From positions 1 to 40,671 of the forward strand of contig JADLGO010000007.1 in NCBI GenBank assembly GCA_020849275.1: a stretch of DNA of 40,671 nucleotides, written 5' to 3'. The notes under the pieces were generated by a model. The model saw only the letters and a list, made by a program, of their open reading frames with translations, searched no databases and had not been told where the DNA came from. The stretch comes from Chthonomonadales bacterium (lineage in GTDB: Bacteria > Armatimonadota > Chthonomonadetes > Chthonomonadales > CAJBBX01). Positions 149 to 40,362 of this stretch are shown in pieces (position 1 is the first letter of the stretch; each line of letters opens with the position of its first letter). The translations under genes and the position numbers were made by a program.

Positions 149-306
149 GGGGGTGATCGCCAGGGTACACCGTGTGACGTGGCGCCCACCGCGCCGGGCT
201 CGCTCCCATGCCTGCCCGCTCGGCCGCGACAGGTATACTCGTAGGCGGGCCGCTGGCCGGCGGAAGGCGCGGCGCACGCCCCACGCACCGCCCCAAGGAG
301 CGACAG

Positions 307-1176
307 ATGCCCGGGATTCTGACCCCCTATCTCGATGACGGATACACGTGGCTGCGGGGGAACCTGCACGCGCACACCACCCTCTCCGATGGCCGGCTCA
401 GCCCGGGAGAGGTGCTCGCCGCCTACGAGCGCGAGGGGTACGACTTCCTGGCGATCTCCGACCACGATCGGCTCGTGCCGCCGGACGACTATCGCGACGC
501 CACCCGGCTCCTGCTTTTGCCCGCCGTCGAGGTGACGGCGCGCGGCCCGCACATGCTGGCGATCGGCGTTCAGTCGATCGTGGAGCCCGACGCCGATCGC
601 CAGCGCTGCATCGAGCAGGCGGCCGGGATGGGCGCCATCACGATCCTCAACCATCCCAACTGGGGCGTCGGCTACAACCACTTCCCGCAGGAGCGCATGG
701 AAGCTCTGCGCGGCTACGCCGGGATCGAGATCTACAACGCCGTGATCGAGTGGCTGGAGGGGAGCGCGCTCGCGCTCGATCGCTGGGACCGGCTGCTGTC
801 TTCGGGTCGGCGGGTGTGGGGCTTCGCCAACGATGACATGCACTGGCCGGAGAACGTGGGCCGTGGCTGGAGCGTGGCGCAGTGCCGCGAGCACACGCCC
901 GCGGCCGTGCTCGAGGCGCTGCGCGAGGGCCGCTTCTACGCCTCGACCGGCGTGACCATCGACTCGGTGCGCCTCGCCAGCGGCGTGCTGGCGGTGGAGG
1001 CGCCAGACGCGCAGCGGATCCGCTTCGTGGGGCGTTGGGGCCGCGAGCTGGCCTTCGTGGACGGGCCGCGCGCCGCGTACCCCATCGGGGGCGGCGAGGG
1101 CGGCTACGTGCGCGCCGAGTGCTATGGGGCCGGGGGACGGACCGCGTGGACTCAGCCGGTGTGGGTGCCGGAGTAA
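307..1176 (+). CDS. PHP-domain metal-dependent phosphoesterase-like protein
   Basis: A 289-aa protein of the PHP (polymerase and histidinol phosphatase) superfamily, which uses clustered His/Asp/Glu residues to bind metals and hydrolyse phosphoesters. Visible motifs are H21-A-H23, then S51-D52-H53-D54, E75 in LLPAVEV, H82, and a later NHPNW, in the order expected for PHP motifs I-III. The start at 307 is chosen because AAGGAG lies 7 bases upstream; the open frame extends to 208 but without a ribosome site. A TATACT at 234-239 could be its -10 but has no convincing -35. No signal peptide is seen, so it is probably cytoplasmic. The last 16 bases overlap the next gene, suggesting co-transcription. 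The substrate cannot be told from sequence. Confidence 0.85.
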   Translation: MPGILTPYLDDGYTWLRGNLHAHTTLSDGRLSPGEVLAAYEREGYDFLAISDHDRLVPPDDYRDATRLLLLPAVEVTARGPHMLAIGVQSIVEPDADRQRCIEQAAGMGAITILNHPNWGVGYNHFPQERMEALRGYAGIEIYNAVIEWLEGSALALDRWDRLLSSGRRVWGFANDDMHWPENVGRGWSVAQCREHTPAAVLEALREGRFYASTGVTIDSVRLASGVLAVEAPDAQRIRFVGRWGRELAFVDGPRAAYPIGGGEGGYVRAECYGAGGRTAWTQPVWVPE

Positions 1177-2384
1177 GCAGGACTCGCGTTCGCCTCGCCG
1201 TGGCGGCGGTCTGGGCGGTCGCGGGGCTCTGCGCGATCGCGGCCGTTCGGGCGCCCGCCGCGCGCCAGGGAGCCAGGCCCATGCGCTGGGAGCGCGTGTC
1301 CAGCCGCGACGGTCAGATTCCGACGCCGCCGGGCGCCGAGCAGCAGACGCTCTGCCTCACGTTGGACGCCGACGGCGACGGCCGCGTCGAGGTGGTCATC
1401 GGTTGCCGCAACCGCGGTCCGGCGCTCGTCTGGTACCGGCGCGTCGCCGAACGCTGGACGGTGCAGGTGATCGAGCCCGAGCCCATCCCGATCGAGGCGG
1501 GCGGCGTCGTATGCGACGTGGACGGCGACGGGAACCCGGACATCATCGCCGGAGAGGACTATCAGGGTTCGCGAGTCTACTGGTGGAGGAACCCGTATCC
1601 GCGGCTCGCGCCCCGCGTGCCCTGGGAACGCCACCTCATCAAGGAGGGCGGCGGAACGCAGCACCACGACCAGATCTGGGGTGACTTCGACGCCGACGGC
1701 CGGCCGGAGCTCGTCTTCTGGAACCAGGGCGCGGGCAAGCTGCTCCGCGCGACCCCACCGGCCGACCCCCGCCAGGGACCCTGGCCGGTCCGCGATCTCT
1801 GGTCCGGCGCCGGGGAGGGCCTGGCGGCGGGCGACGTGGACGGCGACGGTCGGCCCGAGCTCCTGGCCGGCGGCAGGTGGTTCCGGCACGAGGGCGGCGG
1901 CCGCTTCGCCTCGTTCGTCATCGACCCGGAGCAGACCCACCCGCGGATCGCGCTCGGCGACCTGAACGGCGACGGCCGGCTGGAGGTCGTGATGGCCCCC
2001 GGAGACACCGACGGCCGCCTGAGCTGGTACGAGCGGCGAGGTGACGGCGCCCGTCCCACCGACTGGGTGCGCCATGACCTGCTCCCCCAGCCGGTGCGCC
2101 ACGGCCACAGCCTCGCCGTGGCCGACTTCAGCCGCGACGGCCACCTCGACGTGATGTGCGGCGAGATGCGCCGCTGGACCGCCGGCGACGATCACCCGAC
2201 GGCGCGGCTCCGGGTCTTCCTGGGCGACGGGCGCGGCGACTTCACACCCACCGTCCTCTCCACCGGCCTCGGCGTGCACGAGGCGCGCGTGGCCGACGTG
2301 GATGGTGACGGCCGCCCCGACATCGTTGCCAAGCCCTACTCCTGGGACACGCCACGCCTCGACCTCTGGCTCAACCGCCGCTAG
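1161..2384 (+). CDS. Exported VCBS/FG-GAP repeat propeller protein
   Basis: About 407 aa if it starts at the GTG at 1161; GTG 1146 and GTG 1200 are alternatives and none has a clear ribosome site. A hydrophobic N-terminal stretch (VRLAVAAVWAVAGLCAIAA) ending in A-P-A-A looks like a signal peptide. The body carries at least seven calcium-loop repeats: DADGDGRVEV, DVDGDGNPDI, DFDADGRPEL, DVDGDGRPEL, DLNGDGRLEV, DFSRDGHLDV and DVDGDGRPDI. These are diagnostic of VCBS/FG-GAP blades and give a likely seven-bladed beta-propeller outside the cytoplasm, usually a binding or scaffold fold. It overlaps the PHP gene by 16 bases, and its 3' end overlaps the convergent gene at 2371 by 14 bases, leaving no room for a terminator. 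No catalytic residues are evident. Confidence 0.85.
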   Translation: MGAGVSRTRVRLAVAAVWAVAGLCAIAAVRAPAARQGARPMRWERVSSRDGQIPTPPGAEQQTLCLTLDADGDGRVEVVIGCRNRGPALVWYRRVAERWTVQVIEPEPIPIEAGGVVCDVDGDGNPDIIAGEDYQGSRVYWWRNPYPRLAPRVPWERHLIKEGGGTQHHDQIWGDFDADGRPELVFWNQGAGKLLRATPPADPRQGPWPVRDLWSGAGEGLAAGDVDGDGRPELLAGGRWFRHEGGGRFASFVIDPEQTHPRIALGDLNGDGRLEVVMAPGDTDGRLSWYERRGDGARPTDWVRHDLLPQPVRHGHSLAVADFSRDGHLDVMCGEMRRWTAGDDHPTARLRVFLGDGRGDFTPTVLSTGLGVHEARVADVDGDGRPDIVAKPYSWDTPRLDLWLNRR

Positions 2385-5382
2385 AACGCGCCGCCGCGCG
2401 CACGCGCACCATCGCGCACCCGCGCGCCAGCGGCACGCGCAATCGCAGACCCGCCGCCTCACGTCGCCACGGCACACGCCGCCACCCAGCCTCGTCCGGC
2501 AGCAGCGCCTCGCAGATCAGCCCACCGCGCTCCAGGCCGGCCAGCCTCCGGAGCCGCAGCGTAGCCTGACGCGCCGCGCCGCCAAACGTGATCGGCGCCA
2601 CATAGCCCTCCGGCACGCGAAAGAGGTTGGCGAGCGCTGGAGCGGCGCGCGCGGCGTTCGGCTCCAGCACCCACTCGCGTCCGCGCAGGCACTCCAGCAG
2701 CGGGCCGTACGCCAGGTACTGCGCATCGGCCCAGGCGTCCGGCCGGATCGAGTGGTCGTTGCCCGGGAAGGGCGCAGTGGGGAAGACGCCCAGGTGCAGG
2801 TAGCGCTGGAAGAAGCCGTCGGGGGCCGGGCGCAGGTCGTCCGGCGACGATGTCCAGGCGATCACCGACTTGCGCAGCCCCAGGAGCGCTGCGGCGTTGA
2901 GGGCGCCCGGGTACATGCCGAACTCGTCGTAGATGCCGTCGGCCTGGCGCATGAGGTCCAGCCGGCGCACGAGCGTGTTCAGGAACACGACCTTGCCCGC
3001 GCGGTGCATCGATGGGCCGATGCGGCCCATGACCTCGTCCCACGACACCTGGAGGGAGCGCGCCGGCCCCCCGTTCACCCAGCTCACGCCGTCGTCGCGG
3101 CGCAGGTTGTGGTAGCGGGTCCAGTCGGTGCGGTCGATGCAGATTCCGGCCATGGCCGGGGTGCGTTCCAGGTGCCGACGGGCCTGCTCCACCAGGAAGT
3201 CGCGGTAGGCCGGCTCGCCCGGGTCCATCGCCACGGCGCCCTCCCACGAGCCGATGGGGCGCCCGGCCGCGTCGCGGAGCACCGCGCCCTCCAGGCGCCA
3301 CCAGAGGAAACCGTTGGGGTCGCGCCACAGGTCGGCGTCGAGGGCGGCCCTGCCCGGCGGCGGCGCGGCCTGGATGCCGGCGCCGAACTCCGTCACGTTG
3401 AAGTAGGCGAGCACGTGGAAGCCCAGGGAGGCCATCCGCGCGTAGTAGGCGTTCAGCCGGCCCTGCGAGGTCGCCTCGCGCCGGAAGCTGGTCCACTCCT
3501 GCTCGGGCCCCACTGGCGGCAGGAACATGCCCATGTAGGGGAACTCGAAGCTGGCCTGCCAGTTCACGCGAAACGCCATGCGCCTGAGTTTCCTGAGGTC
3601 CAGCTCGCCCTGCCACGAGCTGTAGGCGCCGCACCCGGCCATGTCGCGCGCCGCCGGCACGGCGGGCTCGAAGCTGCGCGGGTAGCGGCGGACGAGCCAG
3701 CCCAGGGCCGCGCGCGGATCCGGGGGGTGCGCCGTCAGGTCGATCGCGAAGCGGACCGGCCGTCCGGCCTCGATGCGATGGTTGGACCGCGAGAGGCAGA
3801 CCATGCCGGCTGCGTCCGTGGCCACCTTCACGTCGAGCAGGCGATCATCGGGCGACTGGACGACGCTGACCGCGCCGCCTCGCGCGGCATAAAGAACGGT
3901 GGCGATGGGCAGCGAGAAGATGTCGGTCGGGTCGAGTGAGTAGCCGTCGACCGGGCTCAGGGGCCGCTCGTGCGCCGCGCCGTACCAGAGGAGCCTGGGC
4001 GCGAAGCGCGCCACCGTGAGCGGATCCGCCCAGCCCGGCGCGCGCGCGGGCCGCGGGTCGGCCCAGGCCGTCCAGAAGCGCGCCTTCGCGGCATCCGGCC
4101 AGCGCAAGGCCGTCTCGATCGGCGTGCTCCACGGGCGGCCCGCGCCGCGGACCTCCACCTCCCACCGCACGCTCGAGCGCGTGGAGAGGAACCGCTCGCG
4201 CAGTCGGCACCGCGCGCCCGTGACGGGGTCGAGCACGCCGCGCTCCGATTCGACGCCGCCGCCGGGCACCGCGCGCAGCCGCGCCGGCCCGGCCACGCAG
4301 CCGGCCAGGCGGGTGGCCCCGCGCACGCCGAGGCGGCCGCCGAGCCGCGGCGAGCGCAACCCGACGAGCGCGCCGTCGGCCCCAATCAGCGCCTCCAGCC
4401 CGCCGCCGCGCACCACGCGCACCGCGCGCGCCGGCGCCTCTGCCGGCACGTGGGGGGCCGCGACCAGGCGGCCGTCGCCCCAGGCCGCGCGCGGCGGCTC
4501 GCCGGAGCCGACCCGATCCACGACGAGACGGAGCTCTCCCGCGCCGGCCAGCGAGACCGCAACGGGGATCGGCGCATCGCCGGCGCGCAGCACCGAGCTC
4601 CGGAACCGCTCACGCCCGTCGACGAGCACTCGCAAGCGCGCCGCGCCGGGGCCGTCGACGGCGGCGGAGGCCTCGAAGCGCGCGTAGCGCCGGCCGAGCG
4701 CGGTGAACAGGACGTCGGCGCCGGCGCGCATGCCCACGCCTTCCCCGAACGAGCGTCCTCCCGCGCGGAGTGGCCCACCATCGGCCGCGCGGTCGAAGCG
4801 AGCGGCGCCCCAATCCGGCCGAACGATCGCCGGGTCGAGCACGGCGATCCCGAGCGCCGCGCGCGGCGCGACAGCCGCCGCGCCGGGGCCGACGATCGCG
4901 GCGTCGCCCCAGTCGGCGTGGTCGCTGTCGATGCCGTCGCCGGCGTCCGTGACGAGCAGGCGCAGCAGACGCACGCCGTCGACCCTCACGTCGACGCGCC
5001 GCGCGGGGTCGCCCAGGCGCATCGTGCCGCTGCGCCAGAGCGTCCGGCCACCGCCGGTCACGACGAACTCGACGCTCGCGGAATGGCCGGCCATCTCGTC
5101 GTCGACGCCCACCCAGGCCACCAGGCGCGCGGGCGCGCCGGAGAGCTCCAGCGTCCAGGCGGAGGCGGCGTGGGTGCCGATGCCGCGCGCGAAGCGGCGT
5201 CCGGCAACGGTGATGGGCCTGCCCTGCACCGAAAGGCGCGCGCGCGGCGCGGCCCAGCCCTGGCGCATGGCGGCGAGATTCAGGGTGTCAAGCCAGCGAA
5301 TGGCCTCGCCCGCGCCGGCGCTGGAGGAGGCCGCCGCCGCGATCAGCAGGCACGCGGCGGCGCCCAGGCGGGCGCGCGTCAC
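2371..5382 (-). CDS. NPCBM-domain protein with glycoside-hydrolase-like region
   Basis: A 1003-aa exported protein. The start is the GTG at 5382, which shares four bases (GTGA) with the stop of the upstream GH127 gene. The N terminus (RLGAAACLLIAAAASSSAGAG) is a signal peptide. Residues about 25-165 match an NPCBM/NEW2 carbohydrate-binding module (RGIGTHAASAW, VGVDDEM, DSDHADWGDAAIV). A second similar module follows (FGEGVGMRAGADVLF). The C-terminal half resembles a TIM-barrel glycosidase: MAGICIDRTDW, GIYDEFGMYPG and the preceding strand motifs place acidic residues where retaining alpha-glycosidase-like enzymes have them. I cannot name the GH family; DUF6259-like or GH36/GH101-like are options. 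Coupling to the GH127 enzyme suggests both act on the same polysaccharide. Confidence 0.75.
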   Translation of the reverse strand: MTRARLGAAACLLIAAAASSSAGAGEAIRWLDTLNLAAMRQGWAAPRARLSVQGRPITVAGRRFARGIGTHAASAWTLELSGAPARLVAWVGVDDEMAGHSASVEFVVTGGGRTLWRSGTMRLGDPARRVDVRVDGVRLLRLLVTDAGDGIDSDHADWGDAAIVGPGAAAVAPRAALGIAVLDPAIVRPDWGAARFDRAADGGPLRAGGRSFGEGVGMRAGADVLFTALGRRYARFEASAAVDGPGAARLRVLVDGRERFRSSVLRAGDAPIPVAVSLAGAGELRLVVDRVGSGEPPRAAWGDGRLVAAPHVPAEAPARAVRVVRGGGLEALIGADGALVGLRSPRLGGRLGVRGATRLAGCVAGPARLRAVPGGGVESERGVLDPVTGARCRLRERFLSTRSSVRWEVEVRGAGRPWSTPIETALRWPDAAKARFWTAWADPRPARAPGWADPLTVARFAPRLLWYGAAHERPLSPVDGYSLDPTDIFSLPIATVLYAARGGAVSVVQSPDDRLLDVKVATDAAGMVCLSRSNHRIEAGRPVRFAIDLTAHPPDPRAALGWLVRRYPRSFEPAVPAARDMAGCGAYSSWQGELDLRKLRRMAFRVNWQASFEFPYMGMFLPPVGPEQEWTSFRREATSQGRLNAYYARMASLGFHVLAYFNVTEFGAGIQAAPPPGRAALDADLWRDPNGFLWWRLEGAVLRDAAGRPIGSWEGAVAMDPGEPAYRDFLVEQARRHLERTPAMAGICIDRTDWTRYHNLRRDDGVSWVNGGPARSLQVSWDEVMGRIGPSMHRAGKVVFLNTLVRRLDLMRQADGIYDEFGMYPGALNAAALLGLRKSVIAWTSSPDDLRPAPDGFFQRYLHLGVFPTAPFPGNDHSIRPDAWADAQYLAYGPLLECLRGREWVLEPNAARAAPALANLFRVPEGYVAPITFGGAARQATLRLRRLAGLERGGLICEALLPDEAGWRRVPWRREAAGLRLRVPLARGCAMVRVRAAARSSGG

Positions 5383-7703
5383 TTCGGTGGCTCGGGGCGC
5401 AGCACGGCGCAGCCGAACACGCCGCCGGCCATGCACCCCGCGTGCGGCACGAAGCGCACCGTCACGCGGCTCTTGCCGCGGGTCAGCTCCGGCGGCAGCG
5501 GGTACTCCACGTCGAAGAGCTGGCCAGGCCTGTCGTGGTTCAGGCTTTGCGTGCCAACCACCGCGCCGTCCACCACGATGTCGAAGGTGCGGGGCGGGTT
5601 GTCGTCGCCCCAGTAGGTGCATACGAGCGTGACGGGCGTATCTGGCGGGACCGCCAGGTCCCAACTCCACCAACCGCCGGGCTCCGCGTGGCGCCAATGC
5701 GAGCCGGCCCAGGGGCCGGAGGCCGTCTTCTCGCCCTTGAGCCCGTGCGCCCGCTCCGACTCGGCCACGTCGGGCAGCACCTCGTCGACGCGGCGGGCGT
5801 CGCGCCGGCGCTTGGCCTCGCGCGCGTCCATCATGGCCCGATGCCGCGCGCTGCCCTCGGCCGCGACGATCCAGTAGACGCCGTAGGGCTCGTTGGTCAC
5901 GCGCTCCAGCGGCACGAAGGTCGTTGCCTCCTCCTGACCTACCGCGCGGAAGGTCAGCGGCCGGCCGGCGACCGGCTCCAGCACCGTTGCGGGCCGCCGG
6001 GCGTCGCCCGTGAGCAGACGCACGCCGCCCTGCACGCGCAGGGGCGCGACCGGGTTCTCGCTCTCCTGCGACGCGGGCGCGACTCCCGGCCCGACAATGC
6101 CGGCAAGCACGATCGGCCCGCAGGCGAAGGCCACCATGTCGGGGTCGTCCGGCATCGGCACGGCGCGCAGCGTCATCGGCAAGGTCAACTCCACGCGATC
6201 CCCATCGCGCCACTCGCGCTCGATCTCCAGATAGGCGCCAGGGCGAGGCGTGCCTGCGGGATTCCCGTTGAGCATGGCGCGGGCACCGGTCGCCCACGCG
6301 GGCACGCGCACCTTCAGCGCCGCGCGCACGGGGCGCCCCGCTCGCACGACGATCGAGGTCGAAGGCTCGTCGGGGAAGCCCGTGGACTGCTCGACGCGCA
6401 GCCCCTTCTCCTCCCAATCCACGGTGGACGAGATGAACAGGTTGACGTACAGGGCGCGGTCATCGTGGAAGTAGATGCTGTCGGCCAGCTTGGCGAAGGA
6501 CTCGATGCCCGTGCCGTAGCAGCACCAGAAGGCGCCCTCCGGCGTGCCGAACCCCTTCGCGTACCCGGTCGCGAGCGGCACATAGTACATCAGCATGCCG
6601 TCGTCGGCGCGCTGGGTGCCCAGGATCCCGTTGAGGAAGGCGCGCTCGTAGTAGTCGGCGTAGGCCGGGTCACCGGTCCAGCGGAAGAGGTAGCGCGTGA
6701 CGCGCAGCATGTTGTAGGTTGTGCAGCACTCCTGGTTGGTGGGTGAGAGCGCCCCTGCCAGGTGGTCGGGGTCGCCCCACGCCTCGCCGTCGGTGCAGCC
6801 GCCGGTCGCGTACGCGCGATGATGCACCACGCGGTCCCAGAAATAGCGGACGATGGTGCGGTAGCGCTCGTCGCCGGTAAGCTCATAGCGGCGCGCGGCC
6901 GCGCAGATCTTGGGGATCTGCGTGTTGGCGTGGATGCGGCTCAGGTTGTCGTGCTCCAGGGCGAGCGGGCCAAGGAACGCCGGCTGGTCGAAGCGACAGG
7001 CGAGCTCGAGGTGGGCGGGGTCGTGGGTCACACCGTACAGATCGTGCAGCGTCTCGGCGATGCCTCCGAACTCCACGTTGAGCAGACGGTCCATCTCCCA
7101 GGTGGTCAGGCGGTCGGCGCGGTGCTTGAAGTAGGCGGCCATGCCCTTGAGCACCTCGAGCGCCTGGCGACTGCCGCACCGGGTGTAGGCGTCGTAGAGC
7201 CCGGCCATGATCTTGTGGATCGTGTAGAACGGGGCCCACGGCGGCCGGTCCATCTTCTCCAGGCGATCCCAGAAGGTGGCGGGGAACGCCGAGAGATAGC
7301 CGCCGCCGAGCGCCTTCTGGCACTCGGCCCAGCCGGCGACGACGCGGTCCACGCGAGCCTTCATCTCCGGGTCCCCGGTGGCCTGGTACATCATCGCGCA
7401 GGCGGAGACGTAGTGGCCGACGAAGTGGCCGCGAACCTCGATGTCGGGCGCCTCCCAACCGCCGAGCGGCTTCGCGCTGGAGGGCAGGCCCGCGTTGAGG
7501 CGAAAGCTGTGCAGCAGGCGCTCCGGGTCGAGCGAGCGCAGGTAGCGGTGGTCGGCCTCCAGGGCCGCGCGGCACGGTCCGCTGGACAGGCGGACCCGCG
7601 TGAGCGGGAAGGGTTGTACCGTCATTCGCGGCTCCCTGTGCCCCGGCGCGGCGCCGGCCGCCGCGCACCAGGCGATGGCGATGCACGCGAGCAGCGTGCG
7701 CAT
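5379..7703 (-). CDS. GH127-type (DUF1680) beta-L-arabinofuranosidase-like enzyme
   Basis: A 774-aa protein with an ATG start and a GAGGAGAG ribosome site. The first about 20 residues (RTLLACIAIAWCAAAGAAPG) form a signal peptide. The body is a full-length DUF1680/GH127 (alpha/alpha)6-barrel. GH127 enzymes use a zinc-bound cysteine nucleophile. The corresponding residues are visible as E325-C326-C327 (in NQECCTTYNM) and W-C394-C395-Y-G; by analogy with HypBA1, C394 would be the nucleophile and E325, C327 and C395 metal ligands. Other family signatures are LGGWEAPDIEVRGHFVGHY and APFYTIHKIMAGLYDAY. The C-terminal 130 or so residues form a beta-sandwich extension. It is translationally coupled to the next gene. 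Likely substrate is an arabinofuranoside, but DUF1680 members vary. Confidence 0.9.
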   Translation of the reverse strand: MRTLLACIAIAWCAAAGAAPGHREPRMTVQPFPLTRVRLSSGPCRAALEADHRYLRSLDPERLLHSFRLNAGLPSSAKPLGGWEAPDIEVRGHFVGHYVSACAMMYQATGDPEMKARVDRVVAGWAECQKALGGGYLSAFPATFWDRLEKMDRPPWAPFYTIHKIMAGLYDAYTRCGSRQALEVLKGMAAYFKHRADRLTTWEMDRLLNVEFGGIAETLHDLYGVTHDPAHLELACRFDQPAFLGPLALEHDNLSRIHANTQIPKICAAARRYELTGDERYRTIVRYFWDRVVHHRAYATGGCTDGEAWGDPDHLAGALSPTNQECCTTYNMLRVTRYLFRWTGDPAYADYYERAFLNGILGTQRADDGMLMYYVPLATGYAKGFGTPEGAFWCCYGTGIESFAKLADSIYFHDDRALYVNLFISSTVDWEEKGLRVEQSTGFPDEPSTSIVVRAGRPVRAALKVRVPAWATGARAMLNGNPAGTPRPGAYLEIEREWRDGDRVELTLPMTLRAVPMPDDPDMVAFACGPIVLAGIVGPGVAPASQESENPVAPLRVQGGVRLLTGDARRPATVLEPVAGRPLTFRAVGQEEATTFVPLERVTNEPYGVYWIVAAEGSARHRAMMDAREAKRRRDARRVDEVLPDVAESERAHGLKGEKTASGPWAGSHWRHAEPGGWWSWDLAVPPDTPVTLVCTYWGDDNPPRTFDIVVDGAVVGTQSLNHDRPGQLFDVEYPLPPELTRGKSRVTVRFVPHAGCMAGGVFGCAVLRPEPPK

Positions 7704-8037
7704 GTTCTCTCCTCTTCCGTCGCGCCCGGTGCGCGGCGCGGGACCTGCCGGCGAGCGAGAGCGGCATCGCCCGGGAGCGGGCTGGCTCGTCCAGCAAGCG
7801 TGGGCCGCGCCTCGACGCGGCGAGTGGTTGGCTCGTCATGCCGATGCCGCGGCGTCGCGCCCGCCTCGCCCTGGCGCTACGCGAGTCCATTTCGGCTGTG
7901 GGCCCCGTCGCACCTGCCGGGTCGCTGTCCGGCGCCGCCCGCGCGCATAGCCGGCGGTCGGCCGGCGAGGCAGGAGGGCGGCGGCGGACGGCGAAACCAG
8001 GGCCGGACGCCGAAGCGTCCCCGGAGGACGACACGCC
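7704..8037. other. Divergent intergenic region, no clear element
   Basis: 334 bases between two divergent carbohydrate genes. It should carry both promoters, yet I see no convincing -35/-10 pair on either strand. The only clear signals are the ribosome sites at its edges: GAGGAGAG for the leftward gene and GGAGGA nine bases before 8038. Open frames crossing it have no recognisable similarity. Confidence 0.5.
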
Positions 8038-37518: not shown

Positions 37519-37690
37519 GTGAAACAGGTCACCATCGAGAACCCGGTCATCAACTCCCCTTTTCGTGAAACCGCAGAGGCATTTCCGGTTCACCGGTACT
37601 GGCATCACCGATGAGATCGTCGAGGGCCGCAGGATCAGCTCCTACTTCATCCCGGTGGCCCCGCCCAAGGGTGATGCCTGCATACTCCTG
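37519..37690 (+). pseudogene. 5' fragment of a BPTD_3080-type restriction endonuclease
   Basis: GTG 37519 with GGGAGG upstream opens VKQVTIENPVINSPFRE, the characteristic N terminus of BPTD_3080-family (type III-like, helicase-nuclease) restriction enzymes. The frame then shifts by one: PQRHFRFTGTGITDEIVEG and RRISSYFIPVAPPKGD continue the family sequence in the next frame from about 37576. Similarity is lost near 37690 and that frame stops at 37738. A full protein would be near 900-1000 aa, so only the first 50-60 codons remain, frameshifted. The matching methyltransferase N terminus lies at 40086. Family assignment is from memory of the motif, not a search. Confidence 0.65.
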
Positions 37691-37756
37691 CAGGATGGGC
37701 GCTGGCTCGCTGTGTCCTTTGAGGTGACGAATCCTTGAAGGAGAGGAGCCAACGCC

Positions 37757-38120
37757 TTGAAGAAAGTGGCACCGTCCAGCCATTTGGGGCAAGAAGTCGC
37801 GCGATTGCTCACGCCGGGACGGCGGCAGGAGGAGTCTGGCGCAGCGGGCGAGTTGGTTCGCCTGGCGGCTCGCCTGGTGTTGCAGGAGGCCCTGGAGGCG
37901 GAGCATGCGAAGTGTCTGGGCCGTGACCGCTACGAGCGGGTTCGTAATCCGCAGGAGGAGTCGGTTCGTCCGAGTGCCTACCGCAACGGCTATGAGCCAG
38001 CGAGTGTGCGCACGGCCGAGGGGCTGCTTTCGGTTTCGGCGCCGCGGATCCGTGGGTCCGAGGAGCCGTACCGTTCTGGTCTGTTGGCCTTCTTGGGCGG
38101 GAACACGGACGTTGTCACGA
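37757..38120 (+). mobile_element. IS256-family transposase, N-terminal fragment
   Basis: From a TTG with AGGAG upstream, about 120 codons resemble the N terminus of mutator-type IS256 transposases: RLVLQEALEAEHAKCLGRDR, YRNGYEPASVRTAEGLLSVS and APRIRGSEEPYRSGLLAFLG. Similarity ends near GGNTDVV. The catalytic DDE domain is absent, so it cannot transpose. The reading frame continues without a stop into the IS21 fragment. I did not find terminal inverted repeats. Confidence 0.75.
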
Positions 38121-38133
38121 GCCGGGCTAGACT

Positions 38134-38430
38134 AGACCAGTTGTTGTCGGGCTATCAAGACCACCCCGTAGCCGGGCAATGTAGACCACTTTGGGGCGCT
38201 GCGGCGGTTGCCATCGACCGCTTCCATCAGCCACCCGTCGGGTGGAGGTGGGAGCAGATGGAGCGACTGGACTTGGACCTCATCCGTGACATCGTGTACC
38301 GGCTGCGCAACAGCCACACCGAGCGCGCCATCGCCAGGGACCTTCGCCTGGCGCGAGAGACCGTGCGCCACTACCACGCGATCGCGCGCCACAGCGGCAT
38401 CTGGGCGGTCGGGTACCGTCCCGCGTCTGG
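38134..38430 (+). mobile_element. IS21-family left-end and IstA N-terminal fragment
   Basis: Three copies of AGACCA(G/C) lie 24-25 bases apart (38134, 38158, 38183), like the multiple terminal repeats of IS21 elements. ATG 38258 with GGAGGTGGGAG upstream opens MERLDLDLIRDIVYRLRNSH and TERAIARDLRLARETVRHYH, the helix-turn-helix start of an IstA transposase. Similarity fades after ARHSG (about 38402). No DDE domain and no IstB follow. The frame is open with the IS256 fragment upstream and runs out of frame over the start of the next gene to 38497. Confidence 0.7.
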
Positions 38431-38448
38431 ACGTGGAGGACTGAGCAC

Positions 38449-40083
38449 ATGGCATACGAGCAGGTTACGTTACGTGAACTGGTCGATCGGTCGGTAAAGC
38501 ACGCCTGGAGCATCCCGGAGTTCCAGCGAGGTTTCGTCTGGAAGAGCACGCAGGTGCGCGATCTGGCGGAATCCCTCTGGCTGGACTATCCCATCGGGTC
38601 GCTGCTCGTCTGGAAGAGCCGCGCAGACGCGGAGGAACAGGTGGCGGTCGATGCCCAGCGCCCGGGCCTGTGGGTCGTCGATGGACAGCAGCGCACGACC
38701 GCCATGTGCATCCTGTTCGGGCGCAAACCGTACTGGTGGCCGGACGCGGGCGAATGGAACAGGACGCTCAAGAGGTATGACATCCGGTTTGACGTGCACA
38801 CCAAGGAACCGCCGTTCTTCTGGGTGGCGAACGCCGCCATCAAGCAGATGAAGGGCAGTCGCTATGTTCCGCTCTCCCGGCTTGTGGTCGTCGATACGGA
38901 GAAGGAGGCCGATCAGAGGACGCTGATGGAGCTGGCGAAGACGATCAAGCTCGAAGGACTATGCGATGGTATGGATGCAATGGAGGTCTACACGCGTCTT
39001 GATCGCGTCCGAAAGATTCGGGACAAGGAAATCGTCACAGTCGCGATCGATCATGAGCTAGAGGACGTGGTAGAGATCTTCTCTCGTCTGAACAGCAAGG
39101 GAACGCGGGTTACCGAGGCAGACATCTATCTCGGCGTGGTGGCGGCTCACAACCCAGGATGGGTGCGTGACATCTTCCTCCCTCACCTGAAGATGCTGGC
39201 TGAAGCCGGATTCGATCTGAACCCCAACCTACTCTTCCGCACCCTCACCGGGGTCGGAGCCAAGAAGGTGCGCTTCAAGGAGATTCAGGAGACCTTCTGG
39301 GACTCTGCCCGGGTCAAGGACGCCTGGGAGCGTACCTGGAATGCGTGGCAACGGCTGATCAGCCGATTCCGCGACCACGGCATTCTGAGCAATGAGATCA
39401 TGCCGACCGAGGCCGCGCTGGTCATAATGGTCAGTCTGATAGACAGGTTTCAGGACCAATCCGACTTCGATGCCACACTCTACTGGTTCGTGCAAGCGTC
39501 CCGGTTCGGCCGCTATAGCGGCTCCGGAGCCACCTCCCTGGAAGAAGATCTGAAAGACGTACAAGAAGCAGGCAGCCAGAAGGAAGCCCTGCGGAGATTG
39601 CTCCGAAGATTCGAGCACGCAAGGCCAATCCAGCCCGAAGATTTCCTGCGTGACTACACTGACAGCCGATTCGGGAGGTTCATGCTCTATCTCATGGCCT
39701 ATCGCCGTGAGGCCCTCGACTGGGACGAGCACAGCCATCGCATCGGCTATGAGGGAGTTCAGGCGCTCGCCAGTTTTCGCCCACAGTTTCATCATATCTT
39801 CCCGAAGAAGTATCTGGAAGGCCACGTGGACGATGATCTTGTGAACGCTCTGGCGAACGTGGCGGTCATTGGTCCGGGCATCAACATACGGATCAGCTCG
39901 AAGACCCCGCTGGACTACGTGAGCCGCTACAGGATCACGGATGAGAAGCTCACTCAACAGTTCATCGACCCCAACTTTGCGAACGTCCAGTTTGCCGCAT
40001 ACCCATCCTGGCTCCAAGAGCGCGCAGAGGCGCTCTCCGAATATGCCAACGCGCTTCTGGGGACTCTGAAGGGGTCACTCTAG
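38449..40083 (+). CDS. DUF262/HNH protein, GmrSD-like nuclease
   Basis: A 544-aa apparently intact protein. ATG 38449 has GGAGG nine bases upstream. Residues about 5-230 are a DUF262 (GmrSD N-terminal) domain: SIPEFQRGFVWKSTQVRDLA, LDYPIGSLLVW, WVVD78-G-Q-Q-R82-TT (the nucleotide-handling DGQQR motif) and VVEIFSRLNSKGTRVTEADI. Near the C terminus F-H448-H449-I-F-P-K-K-Y-L matches the H-I-x-P metal-beta-beta-alpha (HNH) motif of DUF1524. In GmrSD these parts make a type IV, NTP-dependent nuclease that cuts glucosylated phage DNA. Base composition and codon choice are visibly lower in GC than the rest of the window, so it was probably acquired by transfer. It sits between remnants of a restriction-modification system and IS fragments. 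Confidence 0.88.
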   Translation: MAYEQVTLRELVDRSVKHAWSIPEFQRGFVWKSTQVRDLAESLWLDYPIGSLLVWKSRADAEEQVAVDAQRPGLWVVDGQQRTTAMCILFGRKPYWWPDAGEWNRTLKRYDIRFDVHTKEPPFFWVANAAIKQMKGSRYVPLSRLVVVDTEKEADQRTLMELAKTIKLEGLCDGMDAMEVYTRLDRVRKIRDKEIVTVAIDHELEDVVEIFSRLNSKGTRVTEADIYLGVVAAHNPGWVRDIFLPHLKMLAEAGFDLNPNLLFRTLTGVGAKKVRFKEIQETFWDSARVKDAWERTWNAWQRLISRFRDHGILSNEIMPTEAALVIMVSLIDRFQDQSDFDATLYWFVQASRFGRYSGSGATSLEEDLKDVQEAGSQKEALRRLLRRFEHARPIQPEDFLRDYTDSRFGRFMLYLMAYRREALDWDEHSHRIGYEGVQALASFRPQFHHIFPKKYLEGHVDDDLVNALANVAVIGPGINIRISSKTPLDYVSRYRITDEKLTQQFIDPNFANVQFAAYPSWLQERAEALSEYANALLGTLKGSL

Positions 40084-40085
40084 CC

Positions 40086-40362
40086 ATGGCGGGCAAAGCG
40101 AAGCAGAGCGACACGCCGATCGACATCCTGAAGCACCAGCAGAAGCGCGTCAACATCCCCACGAACGAGCTGCGCGACTTCGTGGCCGAAGAGGAAGCGA
40201 CACCGGGCAAGGTGCTCTGCCCGCGTGATCCCTCGCTGGACCCGCAGCTTGTCTTGAAGGGCAATGATGAGTAGGACTGCGCAGACCTGGAGGCGCCGGT
40301 CGTTCCCGTCTACATGCAGGAGAGGATCCAGCCAGGGGCGATCGTCGGGAACCCGCGCTCCC
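40086..40362 (+). pseudogene. 5' fragment of a site-specific DNA methyltransferase (Mod-like)
   Basis: Two bases after the DUF262 stop, an ATG opens 62 codons (MAGKAKQSDTPIDILKHQQK, RVNIPTNELRDFVAEEEATP, RDPSLDPQLVLKGNDE) that match the N terminus of the adenine methyltransferases paired with BPTD_3080-type nucleases. TAG at 40272 interrupts, yet the same frame continues as DCADLEAPVVPVYMQERIQP-GAIV, exactly the expected next segment, with the stop at a position usually Gln. After about 40362 similarity ends. None of the SAM-binding or catalytic D/N-PPY motifs remains. It is therefore a truncated pseudogene, although the 62-aa peptide could still be made. Confidence 0.7.

What the first reader, a model, noticed from the sequence alone, without database searches (positions are those of the whole stretch)
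37519..40362. Wrecked restriction-modification island with a surviving GmrSD-like nuclease
The N terminus of a BPTD_3080-type nuclease and the N terminus of its usual partner methyltransferase flank an apparently intact DUF262/HNH gene. Both R-M genes are reduced to their first 50-90 codons and are broken further by a frameshift and a stop codon, whereas the nuclease between them is uninterrupted over 544 codons. The intact gene may have been kept by selection, possibly as a stand-alone type IV system, after the methyltransferase-dependent system was lost.
Basis: partly seen in the sequence, partly recalled or inferred. Interest (0 to 1): 0.7.

Follow-up and report, generated by a model that had tools for sequence, protein, structure and literature searches.

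The report
Restriction-modification relic keeping its type IV nuclease
A horizontally acquired bacterial defence cassette has lost its two restriction-modification genes, but a third gene between them, predicted to cut phage DNA that carries protective chemical modifications, is still intact and probably still works alone; a second, independently broken cassette in an unrelated bacterium shows the same pattern.

Summary
37519-37738 encodes the N terminus of a BPTD_3080-family restriction endonuclease (frameshifted, truncated). 40086-~40343 encodes the N terminus of its type III-like methyltransferase (one TAG, truncated). Between them 38449-40083 is an uninterrupted 544-codon GmrSD-family (DUF262 + HNH) gene. 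The intact order REase-DUF262-Mod exists in an Anaerolinea MAG (L014; 69% identical DUF262), and plasmid loci show that the REase-Mod junction is a variable cargo slot.

Modification-based restriction was therefore not lost from the host.

The nuclease keeps all but one diagnostic GmrSD-family residue and 144 of 149 columns invariant in its relatives; its best structural match is BrxU. Close relatives often stand alone. Chelativorans (L009) shows an independent relic: broken REase, intact DUF262, truncated Mod.

Best reading: a BrxU-like type IV, modification-dependent nuclease that travelled as cargo in an R-M operon and still functions alone. Selection since the decay is supported, not proven. 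New member of a known kind.

The parts
37519..37738 (+). Remnant of a BPTD_3080-family restriction endonuclease gene: first about 60-75 codons, frameshift around 37562-37569, read ends at TGA 37736-37738
37757..38131 (+). IS256 (Mutator) transposase N-terminal remnant, truncated
38180..38413 (+). Probable IS21-type remnant: TG-starting left end and IstA N-terminal helix-turn-helix (from 38258), truncated. Weak support
   Evidence: NCBIfam transpos_IS21 E 0.016 on profile positions 5-30; terminus by inspection
38435..38440 (+). GGAGGA, likely ribosome-binding site 8 nt before the nuclease ATG
   Evidence: sequence; no sigma-70-like promoter found
38449..40083 (+). Intact GmrSD-family gene, 544 aa: ParB/Srx-like NTPase domain (DUF262; QR 26-27, S42, DGQQR 78-82, FxxxN 211-215), helical linker, HNH domain (HHIFP 448-452, N470, N479)
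40086..40343 (+). Remnant of the type III-like site-specific DNA methyltransferase gene: about 89 of about 920 codons, TAG at 40272-40274, truncated into host DNA
   Evidence: GC step

Best explanation
This is the relic of a horizontally acquired REase-DUF262-Mod cassette. Shown: the gene order, the truncations, the IS remnants, the foreign composition, and an intact nuclease with the family motifs. Inferred: the nuclease is a BrxU-like type IV enzyme. Its N-terminal ParB/Srx-like domain binds and hydrolyses NTP at the DGQQR pocket, and this controls a C-terminal HNH domain that cuts incoming DNA carrying modified bases (by analogy modified cytosines). It needs neither Mod nor REase, so losing them did not disable it, and it has probably been kept because it still restricts modified phages. 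It would complement the host's other restriction-modification pair on contig C24, which would target unmodified DNA.
For: Intact template L014. DUF262 also lies with these genes in L082 (Mod-DUF262-REase), L083, L007 and L016. Stand-alone close relatives without these partners nearby: L003, L004, L005, L010, L080; more distant ones L081, L085, L086. Island GC 0.59 versus 0.715 for the contig, with no close homologs in the phylum, fits lateral arrival. All 26 aligned relatives share P23, Q26, R27, S42, DGQQR, F211, N215, H449, N470 and N479. Structural best match BrxU, Z 22, then SspE/DndI at Z about 11. Retention: 144 of 149 columns invariant in 11 relatives kept, the five changes mild. Zero lesions in 1632 nt versus two in about 408 nt of remnant, P 0.008-0.018. 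Invariant positions lost: remnants 6/30 versus nuclease 5/123, p 0.008; with closer relatives 11/63 versus 25/277, p 0.067. Independent relic L009.
Against: No expression or activity data and no recognisable promoter. The second retention test is only borderline, and the REase remnant taken alone keeps 21 of 22 invariant positions apart from its frameshift. Relic loci were found through the nuclease itself, so relics in which the nuclease also died would be missed. In two other genomes the DUF262 match is split between frames (L011, L012), so the gene can be lost, or those MAGs carry errors. Substrate is unknown. The residue before the catalytic His is H448 where BrxU has D474, which BrxU needs.
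Confidence: 0.68

Rival explanations
1. The whole island is dead or dying. The nuclease gene has simply not been hit yet, because the cassette arrived and broke recently.
For: No promoter found. At a neutral divergence of 0.01 or less, an intact frame would survive by luck about one time in five or more. The REase remnant is still well conserved apart from the frameshift.
Against: Two lesions in about 408 nt of remnant predict about eight in the nuclease gene. The Mod remnant has lost 10 of 41 conserved positions, several radical. Both IS remnants are heavily truncated, so the island is not very young.
Confidence: 0.22
2. The nuclease is SspE- or DndI-like: it reads an epigenetic mark made by a partner, now supplied by the second Mod on contig C24, rather than marks on phage DNA.
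For: SspE and DndI are the next structural neighbours. The genome still has a Mod of the same family. The gene repeatedly sits in operons with Mod genes.
Against: BrxU matches far better (Z 22 versus 11-12). Stand-alone relatives have no such Mod or REase nearby, and several carriers have no BPTD_3080 match at all (G293, G294, G299, G301). SspE and DndI read phosphorothioate, not methylation (PMC10952713, PMC11662687).
Confidence: 0.08
3. Assembly chimera, or chance frames unrelated to R-M.
For: The contig ends 300 bp after the Mod remnant, and composition changes sharply at both island edges.
Against: Highly significant homology to all three genes of a known operon, in the right order and orientation. 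The breaks are an internal stop, a frameshift and IS remnants, not one join. Assembly 99.9% complete with 0.7% contamination.
Confidence: 0.02

Closest known systems
BrxU (PDB 7P9K/7P9M; HEC-05), type IV enzyme embedded in a BREX island (PMC8565348)
   Same: Single chain with N-terminal DUF262 NTPase and C-terminal HNH domain; QR, S42 and DGQQR aligned; carried inside another, methylation-based defence locus
   Different: Only about 17% identical; HHIFP in place of DHIYP; embedded in a BPTD_3080 R-M locus, not BREX; substrate untested
TgvAB embedded in the VPI-2 type I R-M cluster; RloF in Campylobacter type I R-M (PMC11411939, PMC4619093)
   Same: GmrSD-family genes inserted inside an R-M operon, thought to complement it
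   Different: Type I host operon; TgvAB is a two-protein system; host operon intact there, broken here
GmrSD / Eco94GmrSD (PMC4619093, PMC4437046)
   Same: Domain order and motifs DGQQR, H-x-x-P, N, N
   Different: Pfam GmrSD_C only weakly matched; substrate untested
SspE / DndI
   Same: DUF262 + HNH architecture, similar fold (Z about 11-12)
   Different: No phosphorothioation genes seen beside it; weaker structural match
BPTD_3080-family R-M (NF046055 REase + site-specific Mod), e.g. plasmid pAQ5 of Picosynechococcus
   Same: Source of the two remnants; variable gene slot between REase and Mod
   Different: Here both genes are broken; none of the six plasmid loci inspected is annotated with DUF262 in the slot

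Membership tests
GmrSD-family type IV restriction enzymes | DUF262/GmrSD_N domain with DGQQR motif | tested here: met
   Pfam PF03235 E 3e-27; DGQQR 78-82 in 26/26 relatives
GmrSD-family type IV restriction enzymes | C-terminal DUF1524 / His-Me finger (HNH) domain | tested here: met
   Pfam PF07510 weak, below cut-off, but the model matches the BrxU C-terminal domain and Cas9 HNH domains over about 404-522, and the profile aligns HHIFP, N470, N479 with BrxU DHIYP and its Asn residues
GmrSD-family type IV restriction enzymes | D/E before the catalytic His (BrxU D474, required in BrxU) | tested here: not met
   H448 here and H in 25 of 26 aligned relatives; BrxU D474A is inactive. A branch-wide substitution, not decay of this copy; HH pairs occur in other HNH nucleases (own knowledge). 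For this reason I call it a GmrSD-family relative that probably works like BrxU, not a proven type IV enzyme
GmrSD-family type IV restriction enzymes | Cleaves modified DNA only, NTP-stimulated | not testable with these tools
   needs biochemistry
BPTD_3080 R-M system (remnants) | REase over NF046055 cut-off next to a site-specific Mod | tested here: not met
   Remnant hits NF046055 at E 0.031, 12 bits: a relic, not a functional member. Relationship shown by direct alignment
PDC-M55 (PADLOC candidate system) | Component C together with its partner components | tested here: inconclusive
   Nuclease hits PDC-M55C at 1e-22 but HEC-05 better at 7e-29; partner genes of the intact L014 locus hit MTase_III and REase_III models
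SspE/DndI | Works with a phosphorothioation cluster | not tested
   No ssp/dnd search was run across the genome

The most novel reading that the evidence does not exclude
A DUF262-HNH branch (HH in place of DH) forms an itinerant type IV module that loads into the REase-Mod cargo slot of BPTD_3080 systems, spreads with them and then outlives them as a stand-alone defence gene. R-M operons would then act as delivery vehicles that seed genomes with type IV enzymes, seen twice independently in the relic state (window and Chelativorans).
Probability: 0.3. Interest if true: 0.6.

Novelty: new member of a known kind. Interest (0 to 1): 0.38.

Why it matters
It is a readable intermediate in the life of a defence island: the R-M pair is gone and the type IV cargo remains. 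If the nuclease is active, this shows that embedded type IV enzymes are autonomous and can be what selection keeps, and it suggests how stand-alone GmrSD genes arise. The claim is directly testable with one gene in a laboratory strain.

Tried and rejected
Viral-contig scans with two DUF262 queries found no relative. Plasmid and phage collections hold mostly distant DUF262 (best full-length plasmid matches below 30%), so no close relatives for dN/dS. No close homolog among 397 genomes of the Chelativorans order other than Chelativorans itself, and only one further genome at about 55% among 396 of the Anaerolinea class. No Rfam match around the island. No convincing target-site duplication. I considered that the tail of the REase remnant (37670-37735) might be the REase C terminus, i.e. 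an internal deletion; alignments to plasmid homologs make it a decayed continuation of the N terminus instead. For the IS21 stretch, and the first protein used the wrong frame and are discarded; the correct frame is. An empty-site comparison failed: the left-flank sulfotransferase gene has one strong homolog (45%) in 12 relatives and none in the same family. The host's phylum was not identified.

Full report
What is there. The window is the whole of contig C7 of a 4.8 Mb genome. From 37519 to about 40343 lies a stretch of lower GC (REase remnant 0.587, nuclease 0.588, Mod remnant 0.651) between host DNA at 0.73 and 0.78. It contains, all on the + strand: an REase remnant, an IS256 remnant, a probable IS21 remnant, an intact DUF262-HNH gene and a Mod remnant.

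The remnants. The L014 REase (NF046055, 1234 bits) matches the window in two frames, joint E 2e-13; five intact REases agree, and the frame ends at TGA 37736. Mod homology begins just after the nuclease stop and runs for about 89 residues with one TAG. IS256 is supported by Pfam and by annotated relatives; IS21 only weakly.

The intact locus. Anaerolinea L014 reads REase 294-3350, DUF262 3340-4974, Mod 4976-7732, with overlapping or adjacent ends; its DUF262 is 69% identical to the window's. In six plasmid BPTD_3080 loci the REase-Mod junction holds nothing (Nostocales, P. avellanae, Chondrocystis), a UPF0175/DUF3368 pair (pAQ5), or a hypothetical gene (Methylomagnum, Rhizobium): a variable cargo slot. 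DUF262 also accompanies these genes in L082 and L083 (Mod first), in L016 from an archaeal MAG (Mod-REase-DUF262) and in L007 (REase, CBS-domain anti-phage protein, DUF262). In L002 it sits between an SNF2 helicase and a type III Mod. Other close relatives have neither partner nearby.

A second relic. Chelativorans (L009/L090) carries REase residues 8-97 and 491-670 with an internal TGA, an intact DUF262 (57% identical) and Mod residues 2-174. Its breakpoints differ from the window's, so the decay is independent. Both relics were found through DUF262, so this is suggestive, not a rate.

The nuclease. A 26-sequence alignment keeps P23, Q26, R27, S42, DGQQR, F211, N215, H449, P452, N470 and N479 in all members. 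The AlphaFold model (pLDDT 86) matches BrxU best (Foldseek E 1e-13; VIA-align Z 22), then DndI and SspE (Z about 11-12); the C-terminal part alone matches Cas9 HNH domains. The rmsd over the whole chain is large (about 17 A), as expected if domain orientation differs from the BrxU dimer. BrxU D474, which BrxU needs for cleavage, is His in this branch; colicin-type HNH nucleases also use an HH pair (own knowledge), so I read this as a variant rather than a defect. It is the only GmrSD_N gene in the genome.

Is it under selection? Three indirect tests. (a) Of 149 columns invariant in 11 relatives, the window keeps 144, with mild changes. (b) Two lesions in about 408 nt of remnant predict eight in the nuclease; none are seen, P 0.008-0.018 allowing for the small count. 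(c) Conserved positions lost: 6/30 in remnants versus 5/123 (p 0.008), and with closer relatives 11/63 versus 25/277 (p 0.067), the signal coming from the Mod remnant. Together these favour retention, but no close homolog exists for a proper dN/dS.

The rest of the genome. Contig C24 holds a Mod (867 aa) and a BPTD_3080 REase (over the family cut-off, no internal stop), 35-40% identical to L014's and without DUF262 between them. The host therefore still has an apparently intact R-M pair of this family, and the nuclease, if active, must tolerate its methylation.

Comparison with the known. GmrSD-family genes inside R-M or BREX loci are established: BrxU, HEC-05/06, RloF and TgvAB (PMC8565348, PMC11411939, PMC4619093). 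I found no paper mentioning BPTD_3080 in the library. The finding is a new member of a known kind, made more interesting by its relic state.

Noticed in passing
own genome contig C24, 95047-100430 (L060): Second BPTD_3080-type Mod + REase pair in the same genome, apparently intact, without DUF262 between the genes
   Followed up: partly
L009 5062-8326 (Chelativorans petroleitrophicus): Independent relic with broken REase, intact DUF262 and Mod cut at its DPPY motif
   Followed up: yes
L011 1235-2696 and L012 4896-6451: DUF262 match split between frames in two MAGs: gene decay or sequencing error
   Followed up: no
L007 4681-5952 and L011 2883-4034: Similar protein next to DUF262 in both; the L007 copy matches the DS11 CBS-domain anti-phage family NF053863 and lies between REase and DUF262
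   Followed up: no
L083 2731-4680: AAA_21 ATPase gene between Mod and DUF262 in a BPTD_3080 locus: further cargo in the same slot
   Followed up: no
L014 8154-9443: HEC-01A / MAD3-like AAA ATPase just downstream of the intact REase-DUF262-Mod locus
   Followed up: no
L095 9109-9853 (plasmid pAQ5): UPF0175/DUF3368 pair, toxin-antitoxin-like, in the REase-Mod slot
   Followed up: no
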